This document shows positions 13,490 to 29,133 of a DNA stretch of 64,000 bases, piece after piece (positions within the stretch are counted from its first letter, which is position 1; each line of letters opens with the position of its first letter). Below the pieces are notes generated by a model. It made no database searches, was not told where the DNA came from, and saw only the letters and a program-made list of their open reading frames with translations. Source of the stretch: Nocardioides cavernae (lineage in GTDB: Bacteria; Actinomycetota; Actinomycetes; Propionibacteriales; Nocardioidaceae); NCBI RefSeq assembly GCF_013410035.1, contig NZ_JACCBW010000003.1, forward strand, positions 124,001-188,000, read 5' to 3'. Both the position numbers and the translations under genes were made by a program.

Positions 13490-13581
13490 GCCGATGGGTT
13501 GGTCCTCCACAGGGGGAGCGATGTCATCCGCGGTCGCCCGACGCTCGGCGTATCGAGGGAGGCCCGACCCATCCGGAGGCC

Positions 13582-14211: not shown

Positions 14212-14748
14212 TCAGGCTTGACGACCCTTCGATACGAGAGCGTCCTGCACGACCTGCCAGTCGGCCTCGCGCATCGCATGTTGGGACCTCGGCGACAGGG
14301 CCAACCGCCGTACCTCCGCTGCGGTCATGACACCCGGGGCATCAACCCACTCACTCCCGTAGTCCGCCCGAAACGTCGTCACCTCGACGACCTCGGTGTC
14401 AGCGTCGTCGAACTCGGTGTAGCAGTCGAAGCACCGCCAGTCCGGAGACTTGGTCTTCCTGTACTTGATGTCGGCGGATCCACAGGTAGGGCAAAGTCGG
14501 CGGTCGACTGTCCCCGTCCCCGTGGTGATCTTCTCGACCGTGGAGAAGCCCAACAAGCCGAGCTTGTCCCACAGGACGACACGATCGCCCACCGCGATGG
14601 CTCGGGAGTTCGGGACCCGACTGTTCCATGAGTAGAACGTGCTGATGTCGTCCTCGTAGCCGTCGTTGCCGCCATAGGATCGGTCAGCGGGAGCAAGCGC
14701 CATCAGGAGCCAAGCGCGCCGTGTGCGCGCAGCGTCGGTAGCCATCAC
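14212..14748 (-). CDS. Orphan N-terminal domain of an HNH endonuclease-type protein with zinc ribbon
   Basis: The 178-residue product starts near-leaderless and has a PUA/EVE-like beginning (YEDDISTFYSWNSRVPN, then AVGDRVVLWDKLGLLGFSTVEKI). A zinc ribbon (CPTC ... CFDC, residues about 88-111) and a VTTFRADY segment follow. I recall this architecture as the N-terminal half of actinobacterial HNH endonucleases, in which an HNH domain follows. Here the frame stops at VSKGRQA with no HNH residues, so it is either a truncated nuclease or a free-standing modified-base reader. The GTG at 14748 lies six bases after TAAGCT. Confidence 0.55.
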   Translation of the reverse strand: MMATDAARTRRAWLLMALAPADRSYGGNDGYEDDISTFYSWNSRVPNSRAIAVGDRVVLWDKLGLLGFSTVEKITTGTGTVDRRLCPTCGSADIKYRKTKSPDWRCFDCYTEFDDADTEVVEVTTFRADYGSEWVDAPGVMTAAEVRRLALSPRSQHAMREADWQVVQDALVSKGRQA

Positions 14749-14754
14749 GGCGCG

Positions 14755-14760
14755 AGCTTA
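14755..14760 (-). promoter_or_regulatory. -10 box TAAGCT for the gene at 14748
   Basis: Read on the minus strand, TAAGCT then six bases then GTG. This supports GTG 14748 over the neighbouring ATG 14745. Confidence 0.4.
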
Positions 14761-14876
14761 GGAGCTTCAATCCGAGTCAGCTGGAGAACGCCGGGATCGC
14801 CGTCGTCGGAGCTCGTTCCACGGCCCAGCGATTGCACGAGATGGGCGTTTCAGCCGTTTTTGTCGGGAGCAAGCAC

Positions 14877-14882
14877 TAACCT
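14877..14882 (+). promoter_or_regulatory. Candidate -10 box TAACCT for the defence operon
   Basis: TAACCT is the only TANNNT box found shortly upstream of the first defence gene. It would give a leader of about 30 bases that includes the GAGAGGGA ribosome site. No clear -35 element was seen, so the call is weak. Confidence 0.3.
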
Positions 14883-14920
14883 CCGGGTAAAGAGGAAGTG
14901 CCTCACCGAGAGAGGGAAGC

Positions 14921-16393
14921 TTGTCGGACTGGGACATCGCGGAGCCGCGGGCTGACGCACTCATCGAGTCTCTGCGAGCGTTCGGCTACACGCCGGAGGC
15001 AGCGATCGCCGATCTCGTCGACAACAGCATCTCGGCGGGTGCTAGGACGATCCGGATCGATCTCGTCTGGGACGGTAGGGACTCCGTCGTCACCGTCGCT
15101 GACGACGGTCACGGCATGTCCGAAGCGACGCTGTACGACGCGATGCGGCCGGGCAGTCGGAGCCCCCTCGAAGATCGTTCGACGGACGACCTCGGTCGCT
15201 TCGGACTGGGGCTGAAGACCGCGTCGTTCTCCCAGGCGCGTGAATTGACGGTGCTCACCCGGACGAAGTCCAACGGACACGCTGTACGGCGGTGGGACCT
15301 GGACACCGTCGCGGTGACCGGGGAGTGGCGCCTGCTGCGGTCGGGACCGTCCGACCTGGATCTCACCCCGGACGACGATGCCGGAACCTTGGTGGTTTGG
15401 TCGAAGTGCGACCGGTTGGTCGGCGACGTCGACGCGAGCGATTCGAAGGCGCACGACCGGTTCCTCCAACTGACCCGCCGGGTGAAGCAACATCTCGAAG
15501 CGACGTTCCACCGGTTCTTGGTCGGGCGAGGAAGGGTCACGATGACCGTCAACGGTCAGCCGGTCATCCCGTGGGACCCGTTCCTGACCGATCACCCGGC
15601 CACTCAGCAGCTGTTCTCGGAGGAGCTGCCATTCCAGGGGGAGCTGATCAAGGTGACGGCGTACGTGCTCCCGCACCGCAGCAAACTGACGCCGACCCAG
15701 GCCGACCATGGCCATGGGGCATCAGGATGGAACCAGCAGCAGGGGTTCTACCTCTATCGCTCCAACCGCCTCTTGGTCCAAGGTGACTGGCTCGGGCTCG
15801 GGTTCGCGAAAGACGAGCACACCAAACTCGCGCGCATCGCGGTCGACTTCCCTGCCAGCCTCGATCACGCGTGGCAGGTTGACGTGAAGAAGTCATCCGC
15901 ACGGACTCCGGGGCCGCTTGTCGCTGAGCTCCGGCGTATTGCGAAGGCTGCGCGCTCGCGGGCGGAGGAGGTCTACCGGTTCCGCGGCAAGATCACGGCG
16001 TCCAAGACGAGCCAACCATTCGTCGTAGCGTGGCAGCAGTACACCGATAGAGCGGGCGAGATCCGCTACAAGGTCAACAGGTCGCACCCCGTGATCGTCG
16101 CGCTCCTGGATTCCACCGGTGGGCGAAAACGGGAGGTTGAGAAGGCGCTCCGGTTCATCGAGGAGACCGTCCCCACCACGCTCATCGGCGTCAGCATCGC
16201 CGACTCGCTGGATCAGCAGCCGACCCCCTTCGGAGACGCGCCGAAGGATCTGAAGCCGCTCATCGACTTCGTCTTCACGGACCTTGTGAAGGATGGCTAT
16301 TCGGCCGATGAGGCCTTGGATCGGATCGGAGTCATCGAACCGTTCTCGCAGTTTCCCCAGATTGTCCAAGCCTTCCGAGAGAGTCAGCGATGA
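14921..16393 (+). CDS. GHKL ATPase (MutL/MORC-like), first copy of the defence island
   Basis: The 490-residue product has all GHKL ATP-binding motifs. The N-box is IADLVDNSISAGA (residues 28-40), G1 is VADDGHGMSEA (from residue 57), and the ATP lid is DLGRFGLGLKTASFSQ (from residue 90). The transducer-like region continues to about residue 300 and ends in a helical C-terminus. The family binds ATP and dimerises around nucleic acid. The start is a TTG at 14921 with a strong GAGAGGGA site four bases upstream. The stop overlaps the next start (ATGA), beginning a five-gene translationally coupled run. The order GHKL-Z1-nuclease-AIPR matches predicted MutL-homologue restriction systems. Confidence 0.85.
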   Translation: MSDWDIAEPRADALIESLRAFGYTPEAAIADLVDNSISAGARTIRIDLVWDGRDSVVTVADDGHGMSEATLYDAMRPGSRSPLEDRSTDDLGRFGLGLKTASFSQARELTVLTRTKSNGHAVRRWDLDTVAVTGEWRLLRSGPSDLDLTPDDDAGTLVVWSKCDRLVGDVDASDSKAHDRFLQLTRRVKQHLEATFHRFLVGRGRVTMTVNGQPVIPWDPFLTDHPATQQLFSEELPFQGELIKVTAYVLPHRSKLTPTQADHGHGASGWNQQQGFYLYRSNRLLVQGDWLGLGFAKDEHTKLARIAVDFPASLDHAWQVDVKKSSARTPGPLVAELRRIAKAARSRAEEVYRFRGKITASKTSQPFVVAWQQYTDRAGEIRYKVNRSHPVIVALLDSTGGRKREVEKALRFIEETVPTTLIGVSIADSLDQQPTPFGDAPKDLKPLIDFVFTDLVKDGYSADEALDRIGVIEPFSQFPQIVQAFRESQR

Positions 16394-19203
16394 GTAACAC
16401 GACAGCGGTCCGTGGCTTCGTCATCACGAAGATCGACCAGTTCGTGAGCCAGAACAAGCCGGTGACCCCAGAGCAGGTCAGGGCTTGGGTGGACGCCATG
16501 GCTGACATGGCCGAAGGCATGGAGCCCGACGACATCGTCGATCGTGAGCAGATCGCCAAGGAGATCGAGTCCGATGTCAATGTCCACATCGGCAACTGGA
16601 ACTCGATGTCGGATGACTCAGACCACATCCCTTGGCTGCAAGAGCGCCTCGATGACAAGGCTGAGTGGAAGTTCTGGAGTCGTTATGAGCGACTGATGCG
16701 GAACGAGCTCAAACTGCCGCCGAAGTCGGTCGACCGTTTGGACGAGGTGACCGACGACATCCTCGGCCGGTTGGAGGACCCGAAGCGCGAGGGCACTTGG
16801 GACCGCCGGGGTCTTGTGGCTGGTCAAGTTCAGTCCGGTAAGACCGGGAACTACACGGGCCTGATCGCGAAGGCGATCGACAACGGTTACAAGCTGATCG
16901 TCGTCCTAGCCGGCGTCCACAACAGTCTTCGCAGCCAGACGCAAGCCCGGATCGACGAAGGGATCCTTGGGTTCGACACTCGGGCGATCCGCAAGGCCCA
17001 GCAGGCGGACGGCGCCAACCGCATCGGTGTGGGGAAGCTCGCGGGCGAATGGCTGCACGTCAGCTCGTTCACGTCGTCGTCCGAGTCGGGGGACTTCAAG
17101 CTGGCCGTCGCCCAAGGGATGGGGGTGGTGCCCGGAGGCTCAGATCCGATCATCCTGGTGGTCAAGAAGAACAAGTCGATCCTCGAAAACCTCTACAAGT
17201 GGTCGACGCATCTGAAGGGCTCCACCGATCCGGAGACGGGAAAGTTCAGAGTTCGAAACGTGCCGGTCCTAGTGATCGACGACGAAGCAGACCATGCATC
17301 GGTGAACACGAAGTTCGCAAAGGATGACACGGAGATCGACCCGTCCGTGATCAATCGCCTAATCCGGAAATTTCTCGACACATTCGAACAAACCTCGTAC
17401 GTCGCGTATACGGCAACTCCGTTCGCGAACATCTTCATCGACCCGGATGCTGACCACTCCACGGTCGGTGAGGATCTGTTTCCTCGCAGCTTCATCGTGA
17501 ACCTTCCGGCTCCGAGCACGTACATCGGACCTGAACGTGTCTTCGGGCTTGATGCCGACAATGCCAACGCCATCGAAGGTGTCGAAGCCCTCGACATCGT
17601 CAGGAAGCCGTGGGACTACGACGAGTGGCTTCCAGACAAGCACAAGGCACTCGATCCACTTGGCGATGAGCTGCCTGACAGCCTCAAAGACGCAATCGTC
17701 TTCTTCCTAATGGCTGGTGCTGTCCGCAGGCTCCGCGGACAAGTGCAGAAGCACCATTCGATGCTGATCCACGTAACGCGCTTCACCGACATGCAACGTC
17801 GGGTCGCGGACCAAGTCGGCGACTACCTCGACAGTGTGAGGGACAGGCTCGAGTTCGGCGAGGGTGGATCTACCGTGCTCGCCTCGCAGATCGACCGGCT
17901 CTGGAGCGAGGATCTCCTCCCGACGAGTCTGGACATCGCAAGCCGTGAAGACCTCGCCTCACAGGTGGGTGACATCCCGCACTTGGAGGACGTGAAGGCG
18001 GAGATGGTTGAGGCGGCTCGGCGGACCCGGCTCCATGTCGTCAACGGGACGTCTGCTGACGCCTTGGAGTACGTCGACCACCCTGATGGGATCAGCGTCA
18101 TCGCGATTGGTGGCGACAAGCTTTCGCGTGGCCTCACCTTGGAGGGTCTCTGCGTTTCGTACTACCTCCGAGCGAGCCGCATGTACGACACCCTCATGCA
18201 GATGGGCCGATGGTTCGGCTACCGCCCGGGCTATCTGGACCTCTGCCGCTTATACACCACCTCACCCCTTGTCAGCTGGTACGAGAAGATCACGGCCGCC
18301 AGCGCGGAGCTCCAAGCGGAGTTCGAAGCTATGTCGGCCGTGGGGTCTACACCCGAACAGTTCGGCCTCCGTGTCCGTCAGCTTCCGGATGGGCTCCTGG
18401 TCACATCGCCTCAGAAGCTCAAGCACGCCGCTACGTACTCCATCTCCTTCAGCGGCGGGATCTCCGAAACGGTGACATTCCTGCCTGACCAGCGCGAGGC
18501 GAACATCGGGGCGCTGACCGAGCTCATCAGCTCCCTCGGAGGCGATCATTCCCCGGTCGGCGACGGGCGTGTGTGGAGAAACGTTGGCGCGGACACGGTC
18601 ATCAGGTTCTTGTCCGGATACAAGGCGGACAAGGCCGCACTGAAGAGCCTTCCGGAGCCCCTGATCAAGTACATCCAAGCACGCCGAGCGGAGGGCGAGC
18701 TTGGCTCTTGGACCGTCGTCGTCGCCGGTCGGCAGAACGGCACAGAACATTGGACCGTGGCGGGGCAGCAGCTCAGCCTCATCGAGCGGAGCAACCAGGC
18801 CGGCAAGGAGTCGGGACGCTACACGGTGCGACGAGTAGTGAGCCCTGCACATGAGCTTGTCGACTTCACTGCGGCCACGCCGGGCTGGGACCAAGCGCTT
18901 GCGGACACTGTTGAGGCTTGGGAGAAGCGGCCGAACAAGAAGGCGGGGGCAAAGCCGCCGACCGCGCCCAGTGGGCGATCAGAACGGTTCCGTCGTTCGG
19001 TGAACAACGGTCTGCTTCTCGTGTACCCACTTTCGGCCACTCCGTGGTTGAAGACTCACGAGGGAGAGGACCTCTCGAATGAACCGTTCGTTGGGTTCGC
19101 GGTGTCCTTCCCGCATTCGGTAGGGGCGAAGCCCTTGGAATACAAGGTCAACCCGATCTTCCTCAAGAACGTCTTCGGGTGGGACGGCGACGACGATGAG
19201 TGA
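16390..19203 (+). CDS. Z1-domain superfamily 2 helicase-like ATPase
   Basis: The 937-residue product has Walker A in GQVQSGKTGNYTGL (about residues 145-158), a Walker B-like VLVIDDEADHAS (about 293-304) and TATPFANIF (about 341-349) as motif III. The Z1 region holds GGDKLSRGLTLEG and the MQMGRWFGYRPGY block (about 575-615) as motifs V/VI. This is the Z1 protein that accompanies MutL-like ATPases in predicted restriction islands. It should use ATP to move on or remodel DNA for the nuclease encoded next. Its start overlaps the GHKL stop and its end overlaps the next gene by eight bases. Confidence 0.85.
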   Translation: MSNTTAVRGFVITKIDQFVSQNKPVTPEQVRAWVDAMADMAEGMEPDDIVDREQIAKEIESDVNVHIGNWNSMSDDSDHIPWLQERLDDKAEWKFWSRYERLMRNELKLPPKSVDRLDEVTDDILGRLEDPKREGTWDRRGLVAGQVQSGKTGNYTGLIAKAIDNGYKLIVVLAGVHNSLRSQTQARIDEGILGFDTRAIRKAQQADGANRIGVGKLAGEWLHVSSFTSSSESGDFKLAVAQGMGVVPGGSDPIILVVKKNKSILENLYKWSTHLKGSTDPETGKFRVRNVPVLVIDDEADHASVNTKFAKDDTEIDPSVINRLIRKFLDTFEQTSYVAYTATPFANIFIDPDADHSTVGEDLFPRSFIVNLPAPSTYIGPERVFGLDADNANAIEGVEALDIVRKPWDYDEWLPDKHKALDPLGDELPDSLKDAIVFFLMAGAVRRLRGQVQKHHSMLIHVTRFTDMQRRVADQVGDYLDSVRDRLEFGEGGSTVLASQIDRLWSEDLLPTSLDIASREDLASQVGDIPHLEDVKAEMVEAARRTRLHVVNGTSADALEYVDHPDGISVIAIGGDKLSRGLTLEGLCVSYYLRASRMYDTLMQMGRWFGYRPGYLDLCRLYTTSPLVSWYEKITAASAELQAEFEAMSAVGSTPEQFGLRVRQLPDGLLVTSPQKLKHAATYSISFSGGISETVTFLPDQREANIGALTELISSLGGDHSPVGDGRVWRNVGADTVIRFLSGYKADKAALKSLPEPLIKYIQARRAEGELGSWTVVVAGRQNGTEHWTVAGQQLSLIERSNQAGKESGRYTVRRVVSPAHELVDFTAATPGWDQALADTVEAWEKRPNKKAGAKPPTAPSGRSERFRRSVNNGLLLVYPLSATPWLKTHEGEDLSNEPFVGFAVSFPHSVGAKPLEYKVNPIFLKNVFGWDGDDDE

Positions 19204-20191
19204 CGCGCTGAATCCGGCCCTGTGGGCGAAGATCGCCGAGGACCCACTGCCCGCGGGCGCAGTGTTGCGCCGAGTGCTGCCTGGACTGCCGCACGATGTG
19301 TTCATCGGGGAGACTCGCCCAGACAGGAATCGCGTCCTCGAGTTATCAGTTCTCGGCTTGGCGTCCAACATGCCAAAGAAGTGGCGCCAGTCCAAAGGAT
19401 TGGAGATCACGGTCGACTCAACAGATCCAAACCGCACCAAGGTGCGTCTTCGATCGATGACGAAACTGGGCGATCCGCTCTTCACCGAGCTCGCATCCGA
19501 TGTGGTCAGCACGCTGGCTTCATTCCCCGGCGCCGATGCGGCGACTCGGGTGGTCGAGCGCGTCCTCGCTTGGCAGGAGTTCTACGCGCGACGGAGCGAA
19601 CCGTTCTCAGAGGAGATGGCAGCGGGTCTGTTCGGCGAACTGACCGTTCTAGGAGGCTGCTTCATCGGTGCACTTGGCACATCCGCCGCCACTTACGGAT
19701 GGACGGGTCCGGATCCGGCGCTCCAAGACTTCCAGTTCGCCGACTTGGCCGTCGAGGTCAAGACGTATCGCGGCGGTGGGGCCGGACGGATGAAGATCAG
19801 TTCTGAGCGCCAGCTGGACCACATCGGTGTCACCGACCTGTACGTGGCATATGTATCCCTCGACGAGCGCCAAGACGGCACTGGCGTTACGCTCCTTGAG
19901 CTGGTCGACGACGTTCGCCAACAATTGAGCAGCTCCGTCCCCGCTTCGCACCTCTTCGAAGGCAAGCTGCTCAACTGCGGCTGGCACGACTCATATGCGG
20001 AATTCCGCAACGAGCGCTACGAGGTTCGCTCGGTGGAGTTCTTCCTCGTCTCTGACGCGTTCCCGCGCTTAGTCGCCAGCGAGATCCCGACCGGCATCAG
20101 CAATGTGAGCTATCTGCTAGAGCGAAGTGCACTGGATCCCTACTTGATCGAGCGGGACGCCGTCGTAGCGCACCTGAGGACGAAGCAATGA
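19196..20191 (+). CDS. PD-(D/E)XK motif protein (DUF4420 type), predicted nuclease of the defence operon
   Basis: The 331-residue product carries the DUF4420 layout. GLFGELTVLGG (near residue 144) is followed by DFQFADLAVEVKTYRG (near residues 178-193), in which an Asp and E-x-K form the nuclease metal site. Basic RMKISSERQLDH follows. In Z1/MutL-type islands this protein sits between the Z1 helicase and the AIPR protein, as here, and is the best candidate for the DNA-cutting subunit. The ATG at 19196 overlaps the Z1 stop codon region, and its own stop overlaps the AIPR start. Confidence 0.75.
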   Translation: MSDALNPALWAKIAEDPLPAGAVLRRVLPGLPHDVFIGETRPDRNRVLELSVLGLASNMPKKWRQSKGLEITVDSTDPNRTKVRLRSMTKLGDPLFTELASDVVSTLASFPGADAATRVVERVLAWQEFYARRSEPFSEEMAAGLFGELTVLGGCFIGALGTSAATYGWTGPDPALQDFQFADLAVEVKTYRGGGAGRMKISSERQLDHIGVTDLYVAYVSLDERQDGTGVTLLELVDDVRQQLSSSVPASHLFEGKLLNCGWHDSYAEFRNERYEVRSVEFFLVSDAFPRLVASEIPTGISNVSYLLERSALDPYLIERDAVVAHLRTKQ

Positions 20192-22236
20192 GCAATAGTG
20201 ACCTCTCGACGTTCATCGTCGATCTCCACCAAGAGTTGGCGCTCACCGCGTCCCAAGAAGGTGCTGAACGCAGCATCCCAGAGGTATTTACGGAGTACAT
20301 GTTCGACGTACTCACTGAAGCCGGTGAGATCGACGGCGCAGACGTAGCGATGTACGAGGCTCGGGCCGCTAGAGCGTCAGGGTTCACCTTCAGCGAGGAC
20401 GAATCGACGCTCTGGCTGTTTCTGACTGACTACCGCGGCGGCCTAGATGTCGAGTCCTACACCAAGGCGGCATTGGACGCCGGTGTACGGCGAATGACGG
20501 GATTCCTGGAGCAAGCAGTCGGCGGACTCTGGCGGCAGCTGGAGGAGACGTCGCCCGCATGGGACATGGCTCAGCGTGTAGCAGAGACGTGGCCGAAGGT
20601 CGCCGAGGTCCGATTGGTCATCCTGACGAACTCGGATCTTCGGACGACCGTCACGCGTCCGGGTTCCATCGATGCGCGACCGGTCCACTTGTCCGTGTGG
20701 GACGCTACGAGACTTCATCAGCTCGTGACGAGTGGACGAACCCAGGAGCCCATTCACATCGATGTGGTCGCGATGTGGGGTGAGGCCATACCGTGCCTTG
20801 GCCCTCAGGGCGACCCGGGCCGGTACGAGTCGTATCTGACGATGCTGCCGGGCGAGTTCATCTCGAGGATCTACGAGGAGCACGGCCCGCGCCTACTCGA
20901 ACTCAACGTGCGCTCGTTCCTGCAATCGAGGGGCAAGGTGAATCGCGGCATCCAAGAGACGGTCCGGGACGAGCCCCGAAGCTTCCTCGCCTACAACAAC
21001 GGAGTCTCGATGACCGCCGCCGAGGTCGGTGTGGTGGCGCTACCGGGGGGTGGGGTGGGAATCAGCGAGATCCATGACCTGCAGATCGTCAATGGAGGTC
21101 AGACCAGCGCATCCCTGCACTACGCCAAGGTGAAGGGAAAGCAGGCCTTGGCGGACATCTACGTCCAAGCCAAGTTGTCAGTCGTCGAGCCGACGCACCT
21201 GATGAATCTCGTGCCGCGGATCAGCCAGTTCGCCAACAGTCAGAACAAGGTCAACATGGCTGACTTCAGCGCAAATGACCCGTTCCATGTAGAGGTCGAG
21301 AAGCTGTCCCGATCGGTCTGGGCTCCCGGCAAGGGCGGCACCGCTCGGATGACCCGATGGTTCTATGAACGGGCCCGTGGACAGTACGCAGACGCGCATG
21401 CGCGGGAACGCACGCCAGCGAAGCAGCGTGAGTTCAAGGCCGTCCACCCGCTCAACCAGAAGTTCACCAAGACCGATCTGGCGAAGTTCGAAAACACCTG
21501 GGACCAACTGCCGTGGATCGTCTCCTATGGTGCGGAGAAGAACTTCCGCGAGTTCATGCTTCGCATCGAGCGGCGCGGATCGTCCTTCAAGCCGGACCAG
21601 GGCTACTTCGAGCTGCTGGTCGCCAAGGCACTGCTGTTCCGATCGGCGGAGAAGCTCGTAGGCAGTCTCAATCTCGGCGGCTACCGAGCACAGACCGTGA
21701 CCTACACGCTCGCAAAGCTGGCACACGCGACGGAACAGCGCGTAGACCTCAGGGCACTCTGGCGGTCCCAAGAACTGCCGGCGCCGCTCGCTCAAGCGAT
21801 CCTCGAGCTCGCGCCTCGGATCCACGATGTGCTGTTCGAGAGTGCCGGCACAAGGAACATCAGCGAATGGGCCAAGAAGGAGGACTGCTGGAAGGCAGTT
21901 CTGTCGATGCCGTGGGCCGTGCCGGATGATCTTGCGAAGTCACTCACGAGTGGTCGTCGACGTACCAAGACCACGACGGACACGAGCATCGGCGAATTGT
22001 TGAACGATGACGAACGCGCGGCACTCGCGGCGGTCACCTCCATCTCCGGTGACGACTGGTTCGTCCTTAGCCAGTGGGCGAAGCAGACTGGGAACCTCCA
22101 GTCCTGGCAGCGCAGTCTCGCGTTCAGTCTCGGGCGGATCGTGAAGGCCGGTTCGACACCTTCGAGAAAGCAGGCAAACCAAGGCGCGCTGATCCTCGAA
22201 GAGGCCAAACGGTTGGGCTTCGCGGGTGCGCGTTGA
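20188..22236 (+). CDS. AIPR-family (abortive infection phage resistance) protein
   Basis: The 682-residue product contains the AIPR core from about residue 243: FLQSRGKVNRGIQETV, FLAYNNGVSMTA, IHDLQIVNGGQTSASLHYA and SQFANSQNKVNMADFSAND. The NGGQT and N-x-QN-x-V words are typical of the family. AIPR proteins come from phage-resistance plasmids and islands; their molecular action is not well established. The start ATG overlaps the preceding stop. The last codons overlap a TTG start of the next gene, so expression is coupled. Confidence 0.85.
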   Translation: MSNSDLSTFIVDLHQELALTASQEGAERSIPEVFTEYMFDVLTEAGEIDGADVAMYEARAARASGFTFSEDESTLWLFLTDYRGGLDVESYTKAALDAGVRRMTGFLEQAVGGLWRQLEETSPAWDMAQRVAETWPKVAEVRLVILTNSDLRTTVTRPGSIDARPVHLSVWDATRLHQLVTSGRTQEPIHIDVVAMWGEAIPCLGPQGDPGRYESYLTMLPGEFISRIYEEHGPRLLELNVRSFLQSRGKVNRGIQETVRDEPRSFLAYNNGVSMTAAEVGVVALPGGGVGISEIHDLQIVNGGQTSASLHYAKVKGKQALADIYVQAKLSVVEPTHLMNLVPRISQFANSQNKVNMADFSANDPFHVEVEKLSRSVWAPGKGGTARMTRWFYERARGQYADAHARERTPAKQREFKAVHPLNQKFTKTDLAKFENTWDQLPWIVSYGAEKNFREFMLRIERRGSSFKPDQGYFELLVAKALLFRSAEKLVGSLNLGGYRAQTVTYTLAKLAHATEQRVDLRALWRSQELPAPLAQAILELAPRIHDVLFESAGTRNISEWAKKEDCWKAVLSMPWAVPDDLAKSLTSGRRRTKTTTDTSIGELLNDDERAALAAVTSISGDDWFVLSQWAKQTGNLQSWQRSLAFSLGRIVKAGSTPSRKQANQGALILEEAKRLGFAGAR

Positions 22237-25082
22237 ACGGCGAAACCGACGACATGCAGCCCGAGTCGAGGGTTGACCGGCTGGCGGAGCTCTCCCTCGA
22301 CTCGCCGGAGCTCTCCCCGTTCCGACAGTCGATCCGGGAATGGACGCTCTTTGAGTTGCTGAAGGCGGACGGCTTCACAACCGTGGGTAGCGTTGCGTCC
22401 CTGTCGAGATCCGAGCTCTGCGACGTACCGAACATCGGCGAGCAGAGCGTCGACGAGGTCGCGGAGCTCCTCGATCGGATCCGCACAGCACTGCGGTGGG
22501 ATGATCCCGCTCCGAGTTCACACCTCCCGGTAGTCGATTTCGATTGGGAGCCCCAACCCCTCTCGCCGGCTGGCTGGGACGTTGTCGAGGAGCGTCCCAA
22601 GCCGAAATGGCAAGACCTTGGCGGACGTGCAAAGGTCGGCGACGCCCCGGCTTCCCCCAACACCCTCGGCTCGGAGTTCCCTGGCCTCACGCTCCTCGCT
22701 GGTAGGTCGTTGAGCGATCCTCTACTCAAAGCGGCATGGGTCGAGCCGGGCGATGGCCTTGCCCACAGCTGGCTCGCTAGGACGGGCGCCGCTCTCATCG
22801 GGGATCTTCTCGCGCTCACTCGCCAGGACCTACTTCATCTGCGCGGACTGGGGCCGTCGAAGGTACGGCGTCTGTATGACTACCTAGGACGCCTAGCAGG
22901 CGCGGCACCCACAATCGTTGCGTGGGACGACGTCGCCGCAACACCCGCTCCTGACACGCCGTCGGCCGACTCCAGACGTCACGCCATTCTAGAGATGGTC
23001 GTCGCCTGGGCGAGTTCGGTCGCTGGCGCCACGACGTGGGGAGAGGCGCTCATGGTCTCGGCAGAGGCCATGCCGGCGGACGTCGCAGGCGCCTGGCAGG
23101 AGCTGCTCGCGATGGACCTCCCGGCGCTGGTGGAGAGGTCGCCGTTGGCGGAGTTCCTTGCCGATGACCCCCGTCGCTCCCGGGTACTGATTGACCGCGT
23201 TGCGAGCAGCGAACCACTGACGCTGCAAGAACTTGCGACGGAGTTTGGGGTGACGCGCGAGCGCATGCGGCAGATCGAGTCGAAGAGCCTCGAACGCTTG
23301 CGGTCCAACTTCGACTCCTCGCCGACATGGCGCGTCGTGAGGTGGGCGGCGGAACGAGTCGTAGCGCAGGCGGGGGCGTACGCGCCGAGCGACGTCCTTG
23401 CCCGTGCGCTCCCGCGGTGGAGTCCGGCGGAACGGCACCTCGTCGCCCGACTGGCCGGCTACGAACGGTCCGATCCAGCACTGGTCCGTGAGGGCCTAAA
23501 GCTGCCGAACGTTGCCGAGTTGCCCACTATGGCTGACACCGACTTCGTCGTGGACGAGTACGAAGTGGTTGAGCGCCTGCACGCTCTTGGCGTCCTAGAG
23601 CAGCATGTGGAGTTCGCACTCAGTTCGGTCACCGGCGTATCCCGGGTTGACGGGCAGCTGGTCCGATGGAGCGGTTCCGTCGTGGACAAGGCCGTTGCGG
23701 TTCTCGAGATCCGCGATGAGCCTCAAAACATCGACCAGTTGGTCAGCGCCGCATATGGCGAGGGTGGGTCGAGGTCCGCGCGAAATAGGATTTTCGAAGA
23801 CCCACGGCTGATGAGAGTCACGAAGAACAAGGTCGGGCTGCGGCGCTGGGGAGGCGTCAGATACAGCGGAGTGGCCGAGCTCATGTTGGATCGTCTGGCG
23901 AGTGGCCCCATGGACTTGGACGAGTTGGCGGACGAACTGGCTGAACGCTACGAGATCGCTTCAGCCTCGGTGCGTATGTACGCGGCGGCGCCGGCCTTCA
24001 AGGTGACAGGTGACACCATCGCGCTTCGATCTCGACGGGAACCGTACGTGCCGCGACACAAGCCGTGGAAGGTGCGCGGTCTGTATCGCCAATCCGATGT
24101 CCGCACGACCGTGTGGTGCACTGCCGTCGACAACGACATGCTTCGGGGAAGCGGGCGGAGCATCCCGCAAGAGATCGCATCGGATCTGGGTCTTCGTCCG
24201 GGCGACCGGACGGAGCTGACGACCGCCGCGGGTCTGATCCCCGTGGCCTGGAGCGAGACGACGCACTCGGGCCCACACATAGGGTCCATCCGCGAGTTGC
24301 TGGAAGACTCCGGAGCTTCGGTCGGGGATCAGCTGGCCCTCCGGTTCAACCTCGCGGACTGCGGACTGGAGGTCCGAGTCATCAGACCCCCAACTCAGGA
24401 CGATGTCGTGGAGGAATTGGCTCGGCTCACGACGCTCCCGAAGTCGCTCGTGGCACATCGGACTCGGTTGGCCGCAGCTGTCGGCATCGCGCCCGCGGAT
24501 CTGGTGCCGGCGCTGGAGGCGCGCGGGGACGGTGAAGTGGCTTCGTTGGTCGCCCGCTTGCCTCTCCAAGCCGGTGGGGTCCACGACCATGACGCGGACC
24601 AGACATCGAACATGGCGGCCGGTGGGGGAGCGGCGGTTTCCGCGGATAGGCATCCGCCCCGCGTGGACACTCCCAATCGCGACTCGGTTGCACCCAATCG
24701 CGGCGGGCGAGGGGCTACCGACCTCGAGCGGGAGGCCGACTCGACGTCAACCGCTCTTGCAAGCGATCCCGACCAAGCGACACTCGAGCGCGAGTACGAG
24801 CGTGCCGTGGCTAACGCCATGATGCAGATGCGCTCGATCGGCTACGACGAGGCCGCGCTACGGAAGTTGGTCGCCACGGTGGGCTCGCGCAGGGCTAGTG
24901 AGTTGATCGCTGACCTAGCGGAGCCGACCGCGGCCTTCGTGGCCCTCCATCGACTCGGGCGCTTGGATCTCTCTATCGAGGCCCAAATGTCGTCTAGGCC
25001 ATACCGCGGGCTCTTCGAATCGCGCCATCTCTCGAGGATCACCCGACGTCTGCAAGAGCATGGGTTCAAGGTGGACCTCTGA
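22233..25082 (+). CDS. Large multi-HTH/HhH protein of the defence island, function unknown
   Basis: The 949-residue product is not a family I can name. Near residues 45-80 (FTTVGSVASLSRSELCDVPNIGEQSVDEV) and again near residues 190-225 (LALTRQDLLHLRGLGPSKVRRL) it has helix-hairpin-helix units like the RNA polymerase alpha C-terminal domain. Around residues 330-355 LQELATEFGVTRERMRQIES is a sigma-70 region 4 helix-turn-helix. The middle (about 480-610) looks like repeated winged helices (PMDLDELADELAERYEIASASVRMY). The C-terminal third has no motif. This is a DNA-binding protein, perhaps a specificity or transcription-sensing subunit. The TTG at 22233 overlaps the AIPR stop; the ATG at 22254 is the alternative start. 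Confidence 0.65.
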   Translation: MNGETDDMQPESRVDRLAELSLDSPELSPFRQSIREWTLFELLKADGFTTVGSVASLSRSELCDVPNIGEQSVDEVAELLDRIRTALRWDDPAPSSHLPVVDFDWEPQPLSPAGWDVVEERPKPKWQDLGGRAKVGDAPASPNTLGSEFPGLTLLAGRSLSDPLLKAAWVEPGDGLAHSWLARTGAALIGDLLALTRQDLLHLRGLGPSKVRRLYDYLGRLAGAAPTIVAWDDVAATPAPDTPSADSRRHAILEMVVAWASSVAGATTWGEALMVSAEAMPADVAGAWQELLAMDLPALVERSPLAEFLADDPRRSRVLIDRVASSEPLTLQELATEFGVTRERMRQIESKSLERLRSNFDSSPTWRVVRWAAERVVAQAGAYAPSDVLARALPRWSPAERHLVARLAGYERSDPALVREGLKLPNVAELPTMADTDFVVDEYEVVERLHALGVLEQHVEFALSSVTGVSRVDGQLVRWSGSVVDKAVAVLEIRDEPQNIDQLVSAAYGEGGSRSARNRIFEDPRLMRVTKNKVGLRRWGGVRYSGVAELMLDRLASGPMDLDELADELAERYEIASASVRMYAAAPAFKVTGDTIALRSRREPYVPRHKPWKVRGLYRQSDVRTTVWCTAVDNDMLRGSGRSIPQEIASDLGLRPGDRTELTTAAGLIPVAWSETTHSGPHIGSIRELLEDSGASVGDQLALRFNLADCGLEVRVIRPPTQDDVVEELARLTTLPKSLVAHRTRLAAAVGIAPADLVPALEARGDGEVASLVARLPLQAGGVHDHDADQTSNMAAGGGAAVSADRHPPRVDTPNRDSVAPNRGGRGATDLEREADSTSTALASDPDQATLEREYERAVANAMMQMRSIGYDEAALRKLVATVGSRRASELIADLAEPTAAFVALHRLGRLDLSIEAQMSSRPYRGLFESRHLSRITRRLQEHGFKVDL

Positions 25083-25130
25083 TGGCGCGCGACGCGCGTG
25101 CCAAGTGCCAACAGACGCCGGCCAGCTACG

Positions 25131-25136
25131 TAGAAT
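25131..25136 (+). promoter_or_regulatory. -10 box TAGAAT for the methyltransferase gene
   Basis: TAGAAT is followed by seven bases and a GTG at 25144 (another GTG lies at 25141). The modification gene therefore has its own leaderless promoter, separate from the restriction-type operon upstream. Confidence 0.55.
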
Positions 25137-25143
25137 CCCTGTG

Positions 25144-27066
25144 GTGAGTGCAGTGGGACAGCCGGAGAAGCAGCGGATCGATCGCGGTCAGGCACTTCGA
25201 CTGGCTCGCCATCCGGAACACTGTGAGACCGCGGACGAGGTAGTCGCTTTTTCTCGTCGCATCCGCCGCGATCGTCCGGGGCAGTTGATCGCGGCGGACC
25301 TCTTCTCCGGCGCCGGAGGCATGAGCCTCGGCCTCGAGCAGGCAGGGATGAAGGTCGTCTTCGGGGCTGACTTCGATCAGGACGCCCTCCGAACCCACGC
25401 GCATCACTTCGCCGGCATGTCGGTCGGCTGGGATCTGGGCGACCCAGATCGCGTCGACGAGGTCGGGAACATCCTCCGCGCCATCAACATTGATGTCCTC
25501 GCGGGCGGCCCCCCGTGCCAGCCCTTCTCGAAGGCTGGCAGATCGCGCATGCGCTACTTGGTTCAGCACGGAATGCGAGAACCTCACGACAAGCGTCGGG
25601 ACCTGTGGCAGTCCTACCTGGAGATAGTTCGTCTTGCGCAGCCACGCGCCGTGATCATGGAGAACGTCCCCGACATGGCGCTGGACCGCGAGATGTTCAT
25701 CCTTCGCTCTATCGTCCGGCGCTTGGAGGACTGGGGCTACTCCGTCCAAGAACGTGTCGTCGACACCTATCGGTACGGCGTTCCGCAGTTCAGGCAACGG
25801 CTGATCCTCGTCGCGCTCAAGGGCGGCTTGGAGTTCGTATGGCCTGCGGAGTCGAACAAGAAGGTCACGCTCGGGAACGCCATCCGCGACCTGCCCCCTG
25901 TCGGCCCAAAGGAAGGGTGGCTCTTCGACGAGACACGTCAGGTCTGGCGGCTCTACAACGGCCCGCGCACGGCGTTCCAACGTGAGATGCGTGCTGGCGT
26001 CCCTGAGTCGCACGCCAATCGCGTGTACGACCACGTCACCAGGCGCGTACGCGACGACGACGAAGCGGCGTTCGAGCACCTGGACACCAAGACCAAGTAC
26101 TCAGAGTTGCCGGACGAGTTGAAGCGGTATCGCGACGACATCTTCGACGACAAGTACAAGCGGCTGGACGCCGACGATCTGTCTCGGACAATCACGGCAC
26201 ACATCGCCAAGGACGGGTACTGGTACATCCACCCTGAGCAGAACCGGACCCTCACGATCAGAGAAGCCGCGCGGATCCAGACGTTCCCGGATCACTTCAG
26301 GTTCGCCGGGCCGCCGACCGCTGCCTTCAAACAGATTGGGAACGCGGTTCCGCCTCGGCTCGCTCGTGCCATCGGGACGGCAGTCTCCCAGGTCCTGACG
26401 CAGCGAACGGCTCCGTTGGCACTCCGTACGGACACGACGCGATCAGCTCTCGTCGAATGGGGAAGGTGCGCAGACGGGGTCAGTCCCTGGTTGCGATCTC
26501 GCTCACGCTGGCTCGTCGTCCTTGGTGACTCGCTTCTCGGGGATCAGTCACCGATCGTCTCAAAGGCCATCTGGCCGTTGGTCGAGAACTGGACGACGCC
26601 GGAGCGCTTCGTCCAGGACCAGGACCGGGTCGCCGAAGTCACGTCATGGCTCGGTAAGACCGATGCCGGCTCGGCATTGACGGAACTGGCCGGAGCAGTT
26701 GCCGCGGAGGGCGGCTCACTCGACGACGACCACTTGGAGAACCTGGTCGCTCGTGGTCTTCTCAGGCGTGCCGCCGCAGAGCTAGCGATGATCGCCGACC
26801 CCGAGGGAGAGGAACCGGTCATCGCCAACACGGCCGCGCTTCGTGTCGCAGGCCGATTCTTTCAAGGCACGGAGCGCTGGTTGAAGAACCGGAACTCGGA
26901 CGGGCGTATCGCCGTCGGCCGTCTGATCGGCTTCGACGAGGAGAGCCGTCAGGCTCAGGTCGCGCTCATCGAACTGGGCGCGCGGGTTTGCACCCCTAAA
27001 GCTCCGCGATGTCCCGAATGTCCGCTCGCCCAGTGGTGCGAGTACGGAAGCCGCTTCGGACGCTAG
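25144..27066 (+). CDS. DNA cytosine-C5 methyltransferase fused to an endonuclease III-like [4Fe-4S] domain
   Basis: The 640-residue product starts with a complete m5C methyltransferase. Motif I is DLFSGAGGMSLGLEQAG (from residue 52), motif IV is GGPPCQPFSKAGR (catalytic Cys 125), ENVPDM is at 173-178, and QIGNAVPPRLA closes the fold near residue 400. A further 200 residues follow and end in C616-x6-C623-x2-C626-x5-C632, the iron-sulfur loop signature of EndoIII/MutY glycosylases, preceded by QVALIELGARV as in that family. Free-standing EndoIII-like T:G mismatch glycosylases (Mig type) are known beside m5C methyltransferases. Here the domain is fused, but its HhH and catalytic residues are not clearly conserved. 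It has its own promoter. Confidence 0.85.
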   Translation: MSAVGQPEKQRIDRGQALRLARHPEHCETADEVVAFSRRIRRDRPGQLIAADLFSGAGGMSLGLEQAGMKVVFGADFDQDALRTHAHHFAGMSVGWDLGDPDRVDEVGNILRAINIDVLAGGPPCQPFSKAGRSRMRYLVQHGMREPHDKRRDLWQSYLEIVRLAQPRAVIMENVPDMALDREMFILRSIVRRLEDWGYSVQERVVDTYRYGVPQFRQRLILVALKGGLEFVWPAESNKKVTLGNAIRDLPPVGPKEGWLFDETRQVWRLYNGPRTAFQREMRAGVPESHANRVYDHVTRRVRDDDEAAFEHLDTKTKYSELPDELKRYRDDIFDDKYKRLDADDLSRTITAHIAKDGYWYIHPEQNRTLTIREAARIQTFPDHFRFAGPPTAAFKQIGNAVPPRLARAIGTAVSQVLTQRTAPLALRTDTTRSALVEWGRCADGVSPWLRSRSRWLVVLGDSLLGDQSPIVSKAIWPLVENWTTPERFVQDQDRVAEVTSWLGKTDAGSALTELAGAVAAEGGSLDDDHLENLVARGLLRRAAAELAMIADPEGEEPVIANTAALRVAGRFFQGTERWLKNRNSDGRIAVGRLIGFDEESRQAQVALIELGARVCTPKAPRCPECPLAQWCEYGSRFGR

Positions 27067-28352
27067 AGATCGAGCTGCTTGGCCAGCTCCGGGTGCTTCG
27101 AGCGCAGCAGGTCCAAGGCGGAACGGAACTCGACCAGTGACCTGTCCTCGATGAGTGCCGCCTTCAGTGCGATCCCGACGTCGCGAAGAGCCGTCTCGGA
27201 CGCTTTCGACGCCTTCGGCGACGCGTCCGGACGCTCCCCTGAGTTCGCCGACCGGCGGTAGGCGTCGTCTGCCAACACGCACAGCTCGGCCACGGGACGC
27301 TCCAACATCTGCCGCACGACTGGGGGCAGCTCAACGCTCATCTTCGCGACATTGATCTGGAACGATTCATCAAGGTCTGTGTCGAAGTCGATCGCTGCTC
27401 GCGCGAGCTTCATATGCTCGTCAATCCCGCGCAGGCCGGACCATCCGCCGTGCTGAACGAGACGATTGGCCCGATAGATGTACAAGCCTTGCTGGCGATT
27501 CCACTTCAACGGTCCTGAAAGCCGCTCGAACTCATCCAGGGACGAGAATCGATCACGCGCGGGTAGGACGGTCCCGCGGAAGCGGACCTCCGATGAACCC
27601 CCGTCGGTCTCGATCTCGAAGACATGGTCCTGCAGCACGAGTCGTTCTGCCTCCTCCGGGGCGAAGGGATCCCACGGACGGAGCTTCTCGTCGTCCACAC
27701 AGATGATGACCTCGCCGCGTTCCGGAACGTCGCCGGCGATGAAACGGTGGAACACCATCGCAAGGTGCTCAGCCGTCTTTCCTGCCAGTGAACGCAACCG
27801 CCGCCTGCCCCAGCCGCTCTCCGCGTATCGCTCGGGGAGGACCCGGTCCAGGTCCTCCCACACGACCACGGTTCCGGGCGACTCACTCAGGATCCTCTTC
27901 GCATGCTCGATCGCAGGGGAGGTCTCGTTGGCCGTGATGTCCCAGCGGTCGGTGCGGGTGATTCGGTTGAGATCCAGCGTCATGACGCGGATCGAACAGT
28001 GCTTCGGAGACGTTCGTGTCGCCACCGTGAGGCGACGGCACTGTGACAGCGATCCGGTCTTCAGGCCCAAACCGAACCGGCCGAGCTCGTTGGTCTCGTA
28101 GTCCCGACGGGTGCCGAACCGCAGTGCCTCGATCAGGCCGGTCTGCGACATGCCGCAGCCGTCGTCACTGATCAGGACGTAGGAGCCGTTCGGCTCGAAC
28201 TGTGTGAAGACGTTGATCCGCGAGGCCCCGGCAGTGATCGAGTTGTCCACCAGGTCCGCTACGGCGGTGGGAAAGTCGTATCCAATGTCGCGCAGGGATC
28301 CGGTCAAACGCGCGGCGGAAGGCGCCACCTCATAGGCCTTGGTTCCCGTCAC
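27063..28352 (-). CDS. Second GHKL ATPase (MutL/MORC-like) of the defence island
   Basis: The 429-residue product has the N-box VADLVDNSITAG (residues 31-42), G1 ISDDGCGMSQ (61-70) and the lid ELGRFGLGLKTGSLSQ (89-104). It shows clear similarity to the first GHKL protein in this region, with a shorter C-terminus. The start is GTG 28352, placed eight bases after a perfect AGGAGG; the long upstream extension of the frame overlaps vsr antisense and is not real. It is convergent with the methyltransferase gene (4-base overlap of stops) and divergent from vsr. Two GHKL paralogues suggest separate partners or a heterodimer. Confidence 0.85.
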   Translation of the reverse strand: MTGTKAYEVAPSAARLTGSLRDIGYDFPTAVADLVDNSITAGASRINVFTQFEPNGSYVLISDDGCGMSQTGLIEALRFGTRRDYETNELGRFGLGLKTGSLSQCRRLTVATRTSPKHCSIRVMTLDLNRITRTDRWDITANETSPAIEHAKRILSESPGTVVVWEDLDRVLPERYAESGWGRRRLRSLAGKTAEHLAMVFHRFIAGDVPERGEVIICVDDEKLRPWDPFAPEEAERLVLQDHVFEIETDGGSSEVRFRGTVLPARDRFSSLDEFERLSGPLKWNRQQGLYIYRANRLVQHGGWSGLRGIDEHMKLARAAIDFDTDLDESFQINVAKMSVELPPVVRQMLERPVAELCVLADDAYRRSANSGERPDASPKASKASETALRDVGIALKAALIEDRSLVEFRSALDLLRSKHPELAKQLDL

Positions 28353-28366
28353 CGGATCAGTCCTCC

Positions 28367-28372
28367 TAGTGT
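28367..28372 (+). promoter_or_regulatory. -10 box TAGTGT for vsr
   Basis: TAGTGT is followed by seven bases and ATG 28380, fixing a leaderless start for vsr in the short divergent gap with the second GHKL gene. Confidence 0.5.
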
Positions 28373-28379
28373 TCGAATC

Positions 28380-28901
28380 ATGCCAAGCGAAGATCAAGCA
28401 GGGCGTCAGCTTGGGGGCGTGTCTCCGGCAGGCTACGTTGCAGCGCCGACAGACCTTGCTCCCGTGGCGGCCGCGACCCGGAGAACCATGCAGGCGAACC
28501 GGGGGCGCGACACCGGGCCCGAGCTCGTGCTCAGGTCGCTGCTGCACCGTTCCGGGTTGAGGTTCCGAGTGGATCTGCCTCTCCCGTTCGATCGCCGCCG
28601 ACGCGCGGACATTGTATTCACGCGCGTGGGGCTCTACGTCTTCGTTGACGGATGTTTTTGGCACGGATGTCCCGCCCACTTCGTGATGCCGAAGACTAGG
28701 CGTGACTTCTGGGCTAACAAGATCGAGGGAAACCGGTCTCGTGACCGCGACACTGATGAGCGTTTGAGCGCTGCTGGCCTCCATGTCATGAGGGTGTGGG
28801 AGCACGTTCCCCCAGCCGAGGCGCACCAAGAAGTAGTCGGCGCATACAGAGGGCTCATCCTTTCTTCCCCACGCAACCCCGCGCAGCAGATCGTTAGGTG
28901 A
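28380..28901 (+). CDS. vsr: Very short patch repair endonuclease (Vsr)
   Basis: The 173-residue product has the Vsr signature. RRTMQANRGRDTGPELVLRSLLH (from residue 34) is followed by LRFRVD, RRADIVFTRVGLYVFVDGCFWHGCPAH with the catalytic Asp and His, and PKTRRDFWANKIEGNRSRDRDT. VMRVWEHV closes the fold. Vsr nicks 5' of the T in T:G mismatches made when 5-methylcytosine deaminates, so it normally accompanies a cytosine methyltransferase, as it does here. It has an N-terminal extension of about 30 residues with no known role. Confidence 0.9.
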   Translation: MPSEDQAGRQLGGVSPAGYVAAPTDLAPVAAATRRTMQANRGRDTGPELVLRSLLHRSGLRFRVDLPLPFDRRRRADIVFTRVGLYVFVDGCFWHGCPAHFVMPKTRRDFWANKIEGNRSRDRDTDERLSAAGLHVMRVWEHVPPAEAHQEVVGAYRGLILSSPRNPAQQIVR

Positions 28902-29133
28902 GCCACTGCCATCGGCCGAGCGTCGATCCTCCGGCGCGCTCGGTCGTTACAATCCCAGGCCGCTAGGAGGCATGGGCTGCAGCCCACCACCGACTTCGGC
29001 CTGTGCACGAAGCGCGCTGTCGGAAGACAGGTTTAGTGTGGTCAGCAACTCGCCCGGTGCCAGTCCGCCATCACGAACTCATCCGGCGCGTGACTCTCGG
29101 CCAGTTGGGTCATCGTGTGAGCGTGCCGGGGGA

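What the first reader, a model, noticed from the sequence alone, without database searches (positions are those of the whole stretch)
14921..28901. Candidate multi-gene defence system built on two MutL/MORC-like GHKL ATPases
Five genes overlap stop-to-start (GHKL, Z1 helicase, DUF4420 nuclease, AIPR, large HhH/HTH protein). They are followed by a cytosine-C5 methyltransferase, a second GHKL ATPase and Vsr. MutL homologues in restriction-type islands were predicted from comparative genomics (Iyer, Abhiman and Aravind 2008). The stop-start overlaps seen here argue for one coupled machine. The complete composition, with two GHKL proteins and the unexplained large subunit, may be a new variant.
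Basis: partly seen in the sequence, partly recalled or inferred. Interest (0 to 1): 0.85.

Follow-up and report, generated by a model that had tools for sequence, protein, structure and literature searches.

The report
Phage-defence operon with swappable methylation module
A bacterium, probably a Nocardioides, carries on a mobile DNA element a relative of a known virus-defence operon joined to a separate methylation-and-repair cassette that in other bacteria sits beside different defence engines, so the locus looks like a mix-and-match variant of a known kind and not one new machine.

Summary
The genes are real. The first four are MzaB (GHKL), MzaC (Z1 helicase), MzaD (DUF4420) and MzaE (AIPR) homologues in order, all below NCBI's equivalog cut-offs: a relative of Mza that fits Miller 2022's methyltransferase-linked 'type II' system and Iyer 2008's paraMORC neighbourhoods. 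Corrections: the second GHKL is on the minus strand, tail-to-tail with the methyltransferase; the locus most likely rides on a 31-kb element with a relaxase and three tyrosine recombinases. The large protein has sigma-4, winged-helix and B3-like parts, is not MzaA, and was found in none of 80 related loci. New here: the methyltransferase ends in a MutY-like [4Fe-4S] domain without the catalytic Asp; this methyltransferase, the second GHKL and Vsr form a cassette (together in 54 of 63 loci) beside at least three kinds of effector operon, with 10-12 partner changes on trees. So: two exchangeable modules, not one fixed eight-gene machine. New variant of a known kind. Defence activity and mechanism are untested.

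The parts
2816..33813 (.). probable integrated mobile element that carries the locus, bounded by 30-bp direct repeats (2816-2845 and 33784-33813)
   Evidence: 29 of 30 bases identical; GC 0.60-0.69 inside against 0.69-0.75 in the right flank; relaxase and recombinases inside; no empty site found
9950..13489 (+). MobF/TrwC relaxase-helicase
   Evidence: Pfam TrwC 4.5e-87
14212..14748 (-). homologue of the N-terminal half of a 309-aa protein with a C-terminal HNH_2 domain that flanks some related loci; no HNH part seen here
   Evidence: tblastn 4.9e-35 and 2.7e-36; HNH_2 in the L062 copy, no Pfam match for the window copy
14921..16393 (+). MzaB-like GHKL ATPase (B1)
   Evidence: PADLOC MzaB 1.8e-104; N, G1, G2 motifs present
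16390..19203 (+). MzaC-like Z1 superfamily II helicase
   Evidence: PADLOC MzaC 1.5e-210; Walker A, DEAD box and DThhQxuRhFG motif
19196..20191 (+). MzaD-like PD-(D/E)XK nuclease (DUF4420)
   Evidence: Pfam DUF4420 1.5e-60; D...AVEVK read by eye in the translation, after a stricter expression failed
20188..22236 (+). MzaE-like AIPR protein
   Evidence: Pfam AIPR 2.8e-91 and AIPR_N 2.2e-39
22254..25082 (+). large DNA-binding protein: alpha-CTD-like HhH, sigma-70 region 4, winged helices, B3-like domain (start TTG 22233 or ATG 22254)
   Evidence: Pfam; model m428a8c590c60, pLDDT 71.4, and structural alignment
25060..27066 (+). C5 cytosine methyltransferase (start ATG 25060 or GTG 25105)
   Evidence: Pfam DNA_methylase 6e-59; motifs I, IV, VI, VIII, X present
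26404..27066 (+). MutY/Mig-like [4Fe-4S] tail of the methyltransferase, catalytic Asp not kept
   Evidence: hmmsearch of A3 against PDB sequences 3.8e-15; model pLDDT 92.9; Foldseek; residue count
27063..28352 (-). second GHKL ATPase (B2), tail-to-tail with the methyltransferase
   Evidence: PADLOC MzaB 5.6e-59; start chosen by alignment with three relatives; motifs present
28380..28901 (+). Vsr-type T:G mismatch endonuclease
   Evidence: NCBIfam vsr 1.3e-32, above its cut-off; PF03852 7e-15
29134..33708 (-). three tandem tyrosine recombinases (29134-30363, 30366-32441, 32101-33708)
   Evidence: Pfam Phage_integrase 5.3e-7, 3e-10, 1.7e-22

Best explanation
A methylation-guarded, restriction-like anti-phage island made of two exchangeable modules on a mobile element. 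Effector module: B1 (GHKL ATP-gated clamp), Z1 helicase (translocase), DUF4420 (PD-(D/E)XK nuclease) and AIPR attack incoming DNA that lacks the host mark; here they are joined by a large DNA-binding protein that probably supplies sequence recognition or recruitment. Modification module: a C5 methyltransferase marks host DNA. Its MutY-like [4Fe-4S] tail lacks the glycosylase Asp, so it most likely binds DNA (mismatched, hemimethylated or bent sites) without removing a base. Vsr repairs the T:G mismatches that 5-methylcytosine causes. The second GHKL (B2) is an ATPase partner of the methyltransferase or of Vsr. Shown here: gene identities, conserved motifs, the fusion and its predicted fold, recurrence of the cassette, its pairing with different effector operons, the repeats and recombinases of the element. 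Inferred: defence activity, self/non-self by methylation, mobility today, and all biochemical roles.
For: MzaB-C-D-E homologues in order. In a class sample of 394 genomes, 10 genomes, the window's included, have an MzaC match over 700 bits. Within the stretches fetched, a C5 MTase with the four-Cys tail is present in 10 of 10 (in L069 one Cys spacing differs), Vsr in 8, B2 in 3, the large protein in 1. In a scan anchored on B2 (best 80 of 218 relatives kept; at least four of the 80 are the same loci as in the class sample), 63 score 390 bits or more to B2. Anywhere in the fetched stretch these hold an MTase in 62 of 63, one with the FeS tail in 59, Vsr in 57, tail-to-tail MTase/B2 in 53, FeS-MTase plus Vsr in 54. 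Control: 16 loci anchored on homologues of the large protein have Vsr in 1, MTase in 1, GHKL B in 0, Z1 in 0. Effector labels of the 63: type I 30, type II 17, type III 6, other or not visible 10. Effector type changes 12 times on the B2 tree (63 rows, 54 labelled) and 10 times on the MTase tree (51 rows); the least possible is 2. By tree path the window's B2 is nearest to L103 (type I) and its MTase to L105 (type I, 85% identity); its most identical B2 (85%, L102) stands beside another AIPR-bearing variant. Its MzaC is nearest, in the class sample, to a type II copy (63%). Tail: MutY 3.8e-15, Mig 5.7e-13; Foldseek TM 0.5-0.7 to MutY, EndoIII and Mig. The same MTase/GHKL/Z1/DUF4420/AIPR/Vsr set is annotated on an Agrobacterium plasmid.
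Against: No phage or biochemical data. The methyltransferase's target, and whether the effectors spare methylated DNA, are unknown. Mza as Miller describes it is a five-gene set with a sigma factor; that it needs no MTase is recalled. B2 is not seen in 7 of 10 full-length MzaC loci of the class sample, so it is not required. Effector labels rest on score thresholds; 9 of 63 B2-tree rows are unlabelled, and 17 of the 80 loci (B2 under 390 bits) and L127 were left out. The trees are quick ones with long branches. The large protein's model has pLDDT 71 overall, and its B3-like matches (Z 6.6-8.1) lie in the range where a shared arrangement may be accidental.
Confidence: 0.6

Rival explanations
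1. One fixed eight-gene machine with two GHKL subunits forming a heteromer, the large protein being an essential subunit.
For: Short gene overlaps; B1 and B2 both keep the ATPase motifs searched and are 34% identical.
Against: B2 in 3 of 10 full-length MzaC loci, large protein in 1 of 10 and 0 of 80; B2 stands with the MTase beside different effector operons.
Confidence: 0.08
2. B2 is a portable MutL substitute for Vsr: Vsr repair in E. coli works with MutL (Iyer 2008), and the hosts here have none, so the cassette brings its own.
For: No canonical MutL over the cut-off in the window's genome and 29 relatives (0 of 30; two had weak matches below it), nor in any of 19 B2-bearing actinobacterial genomes tested (0 of 19, one weak match). 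Three proteobacterial loci with Vsr and B1 but no B2 (L174, L181 type II; L178 the IIb variant) lie in genomes with MutL (3 of 3).
Against: Seven actinobacterial type II genomes without B2 in the fetched stretch also lack MutL (0 of 7), and six of those loci carry Vsr. Two loci with distant B2-like proteins (L165, L172) lie in genomes that do have MutL. B2 stands without Vsr in the fetched stretch in at least five loci (L114, L120, L124, L131, L145). The correlation may be phylum alone.
Confidence: 0.15
3. Two independent systems side by side: an Mza-like system and a separate type II restriction-modification set in which B2 is part of the restriction activity, as in the BbrUII/HgiDII family.
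For: B2's GHKL domain matches the BbrUII/HgiDII model weakly (1.2e-5, 24 of 550 bits); the cassette recurs as a unit.
Against: B2 is 429 aa and no nuclease domain matched in it; the FeS-MTase is near the Mza-like genes in 10 of 10 class loci even where B2 is not seen, which suggests that it serves those genes.
Confidence: 0.15
4. The large protein is a transcription regulator of the operon (a stand-in for MzaA, a sigma factor) and not a DNA-recognition subunit.
For: Sigma-70 region 4 at residues 305-350 (1.9e-9) and an alpha-CTD-like HhH; MzaA in Mza is sigma-like.
Against: Sigma regions 2 and 3, which an MzaA homologue has, did not match in it; it shares only a 27-aa helix-turn-helix with that homologue; it has a B3-like part of the kind found in restriction enzymes (EcoRII, LlaJI.R1).
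Confidence: 0.3

Closest known systems
Mza (mzaABCDE; Gao et al. 2020, PMC7985843, not held and not read; seen through NCBIfam/PADLOC models and Miller 2022)
   Same: Homologues of MzaB, C, D and E in the same order
   Different: All below NCBI equivalog cut-offs; no MzaA; has a C5 methyltransferase, Vsr and second GHKL; a large unrelated protein after MzaE instead of a sigma factor before MzaB (compare)
Putative defence system type II-A/II-B of Miller et al. 2022 (PMC9523054; section 11 and two passages read)
   Different: The section read names neither a MutY-like tail nor exchange of an MTase/GHKL/Vsr cassette between effector types; figures and supplements not seen
MORC/paraMORC restriction neighbourhoods of Iyer, Abhiman and Aravind 2008 (PMC2292703; outline and sections 4-6 read)
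   Same: GHKL + helicase with DThhQxuRhFG motif + RE-fold nuclease, with DCM, Vsr and AIPR; a second GHKL in a subset
   Different: In the sections read: predictions only, no MTase-MutY-like fusion, no large B3/sigma-4 protein of this kind, no tally of cassette exchange
MutY / EndoIII / Mig glycosylases
   Same: HhH-GPD fold and [4Fe-4S] cysteines in the methyltransferase tail
   Different: Catalytic Asp not kept in any of the 47 tails that could be scored; fused to a C5 methyltransferase

Membership tests
Mza (mzaABCDE) | MzaB, MzaC, MzaD, MzaE homologues in this order | tested here: met
   PADLOC 1.8e-104, 1.5e-210, 2.3e-27, 1e-103 in order B-C-D-E
Mza (mzaABCDE) | NCBIfam equivalog cut-offs for the components | tested here: not met
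   427.6/850, 762.3/1500, 145.4/420, 436.9/1050 bits
Mza (mzaABCDE) | MzaA sigma-70-like subunit | tested here: not met
   large protein: 36.8 of 800 bits, only its region-4 stretch; 27 aa shared with an MzaA homologue
Mza (mzaABCDE) | anti-phage activity | not testable with these tools
   needs plaque assays
Miller 2022 putative system, type II | Z1 protein + DUF4420 protein + cytosine methyltransferase | tested here: met
   (the section prints DUF4220, taken as DUF4420)
Miller 2022 putative system, type II | AIPR protein, with a MORC-type GHKL in association | tested here: met
Miller 2022 putative system, type II | associated putative transcriptional regulator | tested here: inconclusive
   large protein has sigma-4 and HTH parts but its identity with their regulator was not tested
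Iyer 2008 MORC/paraMORC neighbourhood | helicase with DThhQxuRhFG motif next to a GHKL and an RE-fold nuclease | tested here: met
   DTLMQMGRWFG at residue 600
Iyer 2008 MORC/paraMORC neighbourhood | DCM, Vsr and, in a subset, a second GHKL | tested here: met
   which of the five paraMORC families B1 and B2 belong to was not tested
active MutY/EndoIII-type DNA glycosylase (methyltransferase tail) | fold and [4Fe-4S] cysteines | tested here: met
   (fold predicted, not solved)
active MutY/EndoIII-type DNA glycosylase (methyltransferase tail) | catalytic Asp | tested here: not met
   0 of 47 tails that matched the motif expression have Asp; 21 of 68 rows did not match and are not counted; one locus is in the rows twice
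Vsr endonuclease | family model cut-off and conserved motifs | tested here: met
   112.6 over 97.85 bits; GCFWH and VWE present

The most novel reading that the evidence does not exclude
A portable epigenetic cassette: a C5 methyltransferase with a pseudo-MutY sensor tail, its own MutL-like ATPase (B2) and Vsr act together as a self-marking, damage-proofing and licensing unit onto which different GHKL/Z1/nuclease engines dock, so that one methylation mark licenses interchangeable restriction engines.
Probability: 0.25. Interest if true: 0.72.

Novelty: new variant of a known kind. Interest (0 to 1): 0.5.

Why it matters
If right, it explains why these islands hold two MutL-like ATPases: one belongs to the engine, one to the mark. 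It offers a natural experiment in which closely related methyltransferases are paired with different restriction engines, and a glycosylase fold without its catalytic residue reused inside a methyltransferase. It makes a simple question testable: does B2 work with the methyltransferase, with Vsr or with the engine?

Tried and rejected
MutL-substitute idea for B2: kept only as a rival, because B2-less actinobacterial loci with Vsr also lie in genomes without MutL. Large protein as MzaA: rejected on sequence. Large protein as a regular component: rejected. tRNA-Ala (3119-3191) as the insertion site: not supported, since the direct repeats lie at 2816 and 33784. Empty attachment site: not found; of 196 genus genomes, the window's own included, one other had a site within 2 mismatches, and it is an occupied right junction 75% identical over about 2.2 kb. 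An expression for the D-ExK motif of the nuclease failed; the motif was then read by eye. Literature searches for a methyltransferase fused to a glycosylase: one search listed two papers that are off the topic by title and start of abstract, the other two listed none; the library is open-licence PubMed Central only. Searches for Mza and its domains led to Miller 2022; PMC5379612 (holds 'Z1 domain', 'AIPR', 'DUF4420') and PMC10740426 (holds 'Mza') were seen in listings only and not opened. Parts of the large protein outside those listed were barely tested.
Full report
WHAT IS THERE. The window lies in a 4.3-Mb genome. Its genus is probably Nocardioides: the eight B2 relatives at 80% identity or more among the 80 kept are all labelled so, and the 'same genus' genome G185 has a contig of the same length as the Nocardioides solisilvae record L171. 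Eight genes between 14921 and 28901 are confirmed by profiles. The first four are homologues of MzaB (GHKL), MzaC (Z1 helicase), MzaD (DUF4420 nuclease) and MzaE (AIPR), with overlaps of 4, 8 and 4 nt. A large protein follows (22233 or 22254 to 25082), then a C5 methyltransferase (25060 or 25105 to 27066). The second GHKL (27063-28352) runs on the other strand; its stop codon overlaps that of the methyltransferase. Vsr (28380-28901) diverges from it. The ATPase, helicase, methyltransferase and Vsr motifs searched for are present (motif definitions recalled, except DThhQxuRhFG, which is Iyer's).

MOBILE ELEMENT. GC is 0.60-0.69 across about 3-34 kb and 0.69-0.75 in the right flank. A 30-bp direct repeat (29 of 30) bounds 2816-33813. 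Inside are a MobF relaxase and three tandem tyrosine recombinases. Of 196 genomes searched in the genus, the window's own included, one other has a related site, with the recombinase end and the neighbouring gene at 75% identity. No empty site was found, so mobility is inferred.

RELATION TO KNOWN SYSTEMS. The four core proteins fall below NCBI's equivalog cut-offs, so it is not Mza in the strict sense. Miller 2022 (PMC9523054, section 11) describes a putative system with Z1 + PD-(D/E)XK + cytosine methyltransferase; its type II adds AIPR, is associated with a MORC-type protein and a putative regulator, and resembles Mza at about 20% identity. Iyer 2008 (PMC2292703, sections 4-6) predicted such neighbourhoods, with methylases and Vsr, and a second GHKL in a subset. 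Gao 2020 is not held and was not read. MTase-GHKL-Z1-DUF4420-AIPR in one direction, with Vsr on the other strand, is annotated on an Agrobacterium plasmid; an MzaA-to-E operon followed by a restriction endonuclease and a C5 methyltransferase is on a Thalassospira plasmid. Bellieny-Rabelo 2021 (PMC8011034, passages read) links Vsr, C5 methylases and paraMORC-like kinases in other loci.

TWO MODULES. In a class sample of 394 genomes, 36 have an MzaC match at E <= 1e-20; 10 of these, the window's included, exceed 700 bits. Around those 10 (18-20 kb fetched for each of the 9 others): methyltransferase with four-cysteine tail 10 of 10 (in L069 one spacing differs, seen in the alignment), Vsr 8, second GHKL 3, large protein 1. 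In the same genus, L076 has close homologues of the window's methyltransferase, second GHKL and Vsr, and a recombinase homologue, beside a different Z1/DUF4420 operon. A scan anchored on the second GHKL gave 218 relatives, of which the best 80 were kept. Of these 80, 63 score at least 390 bits to B2. Anywhere in the fetched stretch: methyltransferase in 62 of 63, with FeS tail in 59, Vsr in 57, tail-to-tail arrangement in 53, FeS-methyltransferase plus Vsr in 54; of the 49 with 20 kb or more, 48, 44 and 44 have the tail, Vsr and the tail-to-tail arrangement. Their effector operons, labelled by score thresholds (type names I and II after Miller as far as the section allows, III and IIb mine): type I (Z1, DUF4420, no AIPR) 30, type II (MzaB-C-D-E-like) 17, type III (AIPR with another make-up) 6, IIb 1, AIPR only 5, none visible 4. 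Of the 30 type I loci, 29 hold an own GHKL-like protein (N-box, DxG and GxGKT motifs in A5; no Pfam match) and L111 a second B2-like one, so the cassette's GHKL is a second one there too. On the B2 tree (62 loci, L127 left out, plus the window; 54 labelled) effector type changes 12 times, on the methyltransferase tree (51 rows: labelled loci with a FeS tail, plus the window) 10 times; the least possible is 2. Shuffled labels need 20.4 and 18.8, so pairing is clustered but not fixed. By path the window's B2 is nearest to L103 and its methyltransferase to L105, both beside type I effectors; the most identical B2 (85%) is in L102, beside the IIb variant. Control loci anchored on the large protein's homologues: Vsr 1 of 16, methyltransferase 1 of 16, GHKL B and Z1 0 of 16.

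METHYLTRANSFERASE TAIL. A profile of 57 tails (A3) finds MutY (3.8e-15) and the T:G glycosylase Mig (1kea, 5.7e-13) over nearly its whole length. AlphaFold gives pLDDT 92.9; Foldseek returns MutY, EndoIII and Mig (TM 0.5-0.7). The position of the catalytic Asp holds T, G, N, S, R, A or I in the 47 rows that matched a motif expression, never Asp; 21 of 68 rows did not match, and one locus is in the rows twice. Hence a DNA-binding, probably inactive glycosylase fold. Three searches for such a fusion in print found none.

LARGE PROTEIN. It has an alpha-CTD-like HhH and sigma region 4. The model (pLDDT 71) aligns with sigma-4 (Z 8.5), winged helices, and at 612-712 with B3-like domains: LlaJI.R1 N-domain Z 8.1, VRN1 8.0, ARF1 7.6, EcoRII 6.6. 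Iyer 2008 noted VP1/RAV domains in another group of MORC operons, those with SWI2/SNF2 helicases. Homologues stand elsewhere, one beside a GmrSD enzyme (L092) and one beside a PLD-helicase (L089). It shares only 27 aa with an MzaA homologue, which has sigma regions 1.2, 2, 3 and 4 and ankyrin repeats.

MUTL. No canonical MutL over the cut-off in the host and 29 relatives (0 of 30, two weak matches). One search tested 34 genomes: 0 of 19 B2-bearing actinobacterial ones (one weak match), 0 of 7 actinobacterial type II ones without B2 in the fetched stretch, 3 of 3 proteobacterial ones with B1 and Vsr but no B2, and of 5 with distant B2-like proteins 2 with MutL and 3 (all archaeal MAGs) without. 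The same control genomes rang in 11 of 14 in both calls. This fits a MutL-substitute role for B2 in part but does not separate it from phylum.

VERDICT. Known kind (Mza-like / Miller type II / paraMORC), new variant. The new points are the exchangeable methyltransferase-GHKL-Vsr cassette, the pseudo-MutY tail, and the B3/sigma-4 protein. Mechanism is inferred.

Noticed in passing
L107 (Erythrobacter MAG, 14-kb contig): Carries a cassette whose B2 is 79% identical to the window's; the other copies that close are from Nocardioides, so the short contig may be a binning error and not a transfer to Pseudomonadota.
   Followed up: no
L062:13570-13893 (same as L110:13520-13843): A uracil/mismatch glycosylase (UDG superfamily) fragment of 107 aa lies between AIPR and the methyltransferase, in the place of the window's large gene.
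   Followed up: partly
window 14212-14748; L062:4626-5555; L103:20436-21287; also L104, L111, L129, L158: A protein with an N-terminal domain of unknown kind and, in the L062 copy, a C-terminal HNH_2 domain flanks several type I and II loci; the window copy has only the N-terminal half.
   Followed up: partly
L121, L133, L134, L143 (Frankiaceae): AIPR plus two FeS-methyltransferases, Vsr and B2 next to a 936-1026-aa protein with a weak B1 match: possibly a further effector type.
   Followed up: no
L154:13903-17330: A 739-aa protein with a GHKL-like N-box (by eye) and a 403-aa response-regulator-like protein (by eye) follow Vsr, like the HEF_HK/Response_reg_2 pairs of PMC8011034 (passages read).
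   Followed up: no
window 2662-2692 and about 33890: A stretch like the start of the gene at 33907 lies just outside the left repeat as well, perhaps a relic of earlier insertions.
   Followed up: partly
window 4815-6143: A 442-aa protein ends in a weak match to the 6-O-methylguanine-methyltransferase DNA-binding domain (8.8e-6, below the cut-off); a GmrSD protein in L092 has a weak match of the same kind.
   Followed up: no
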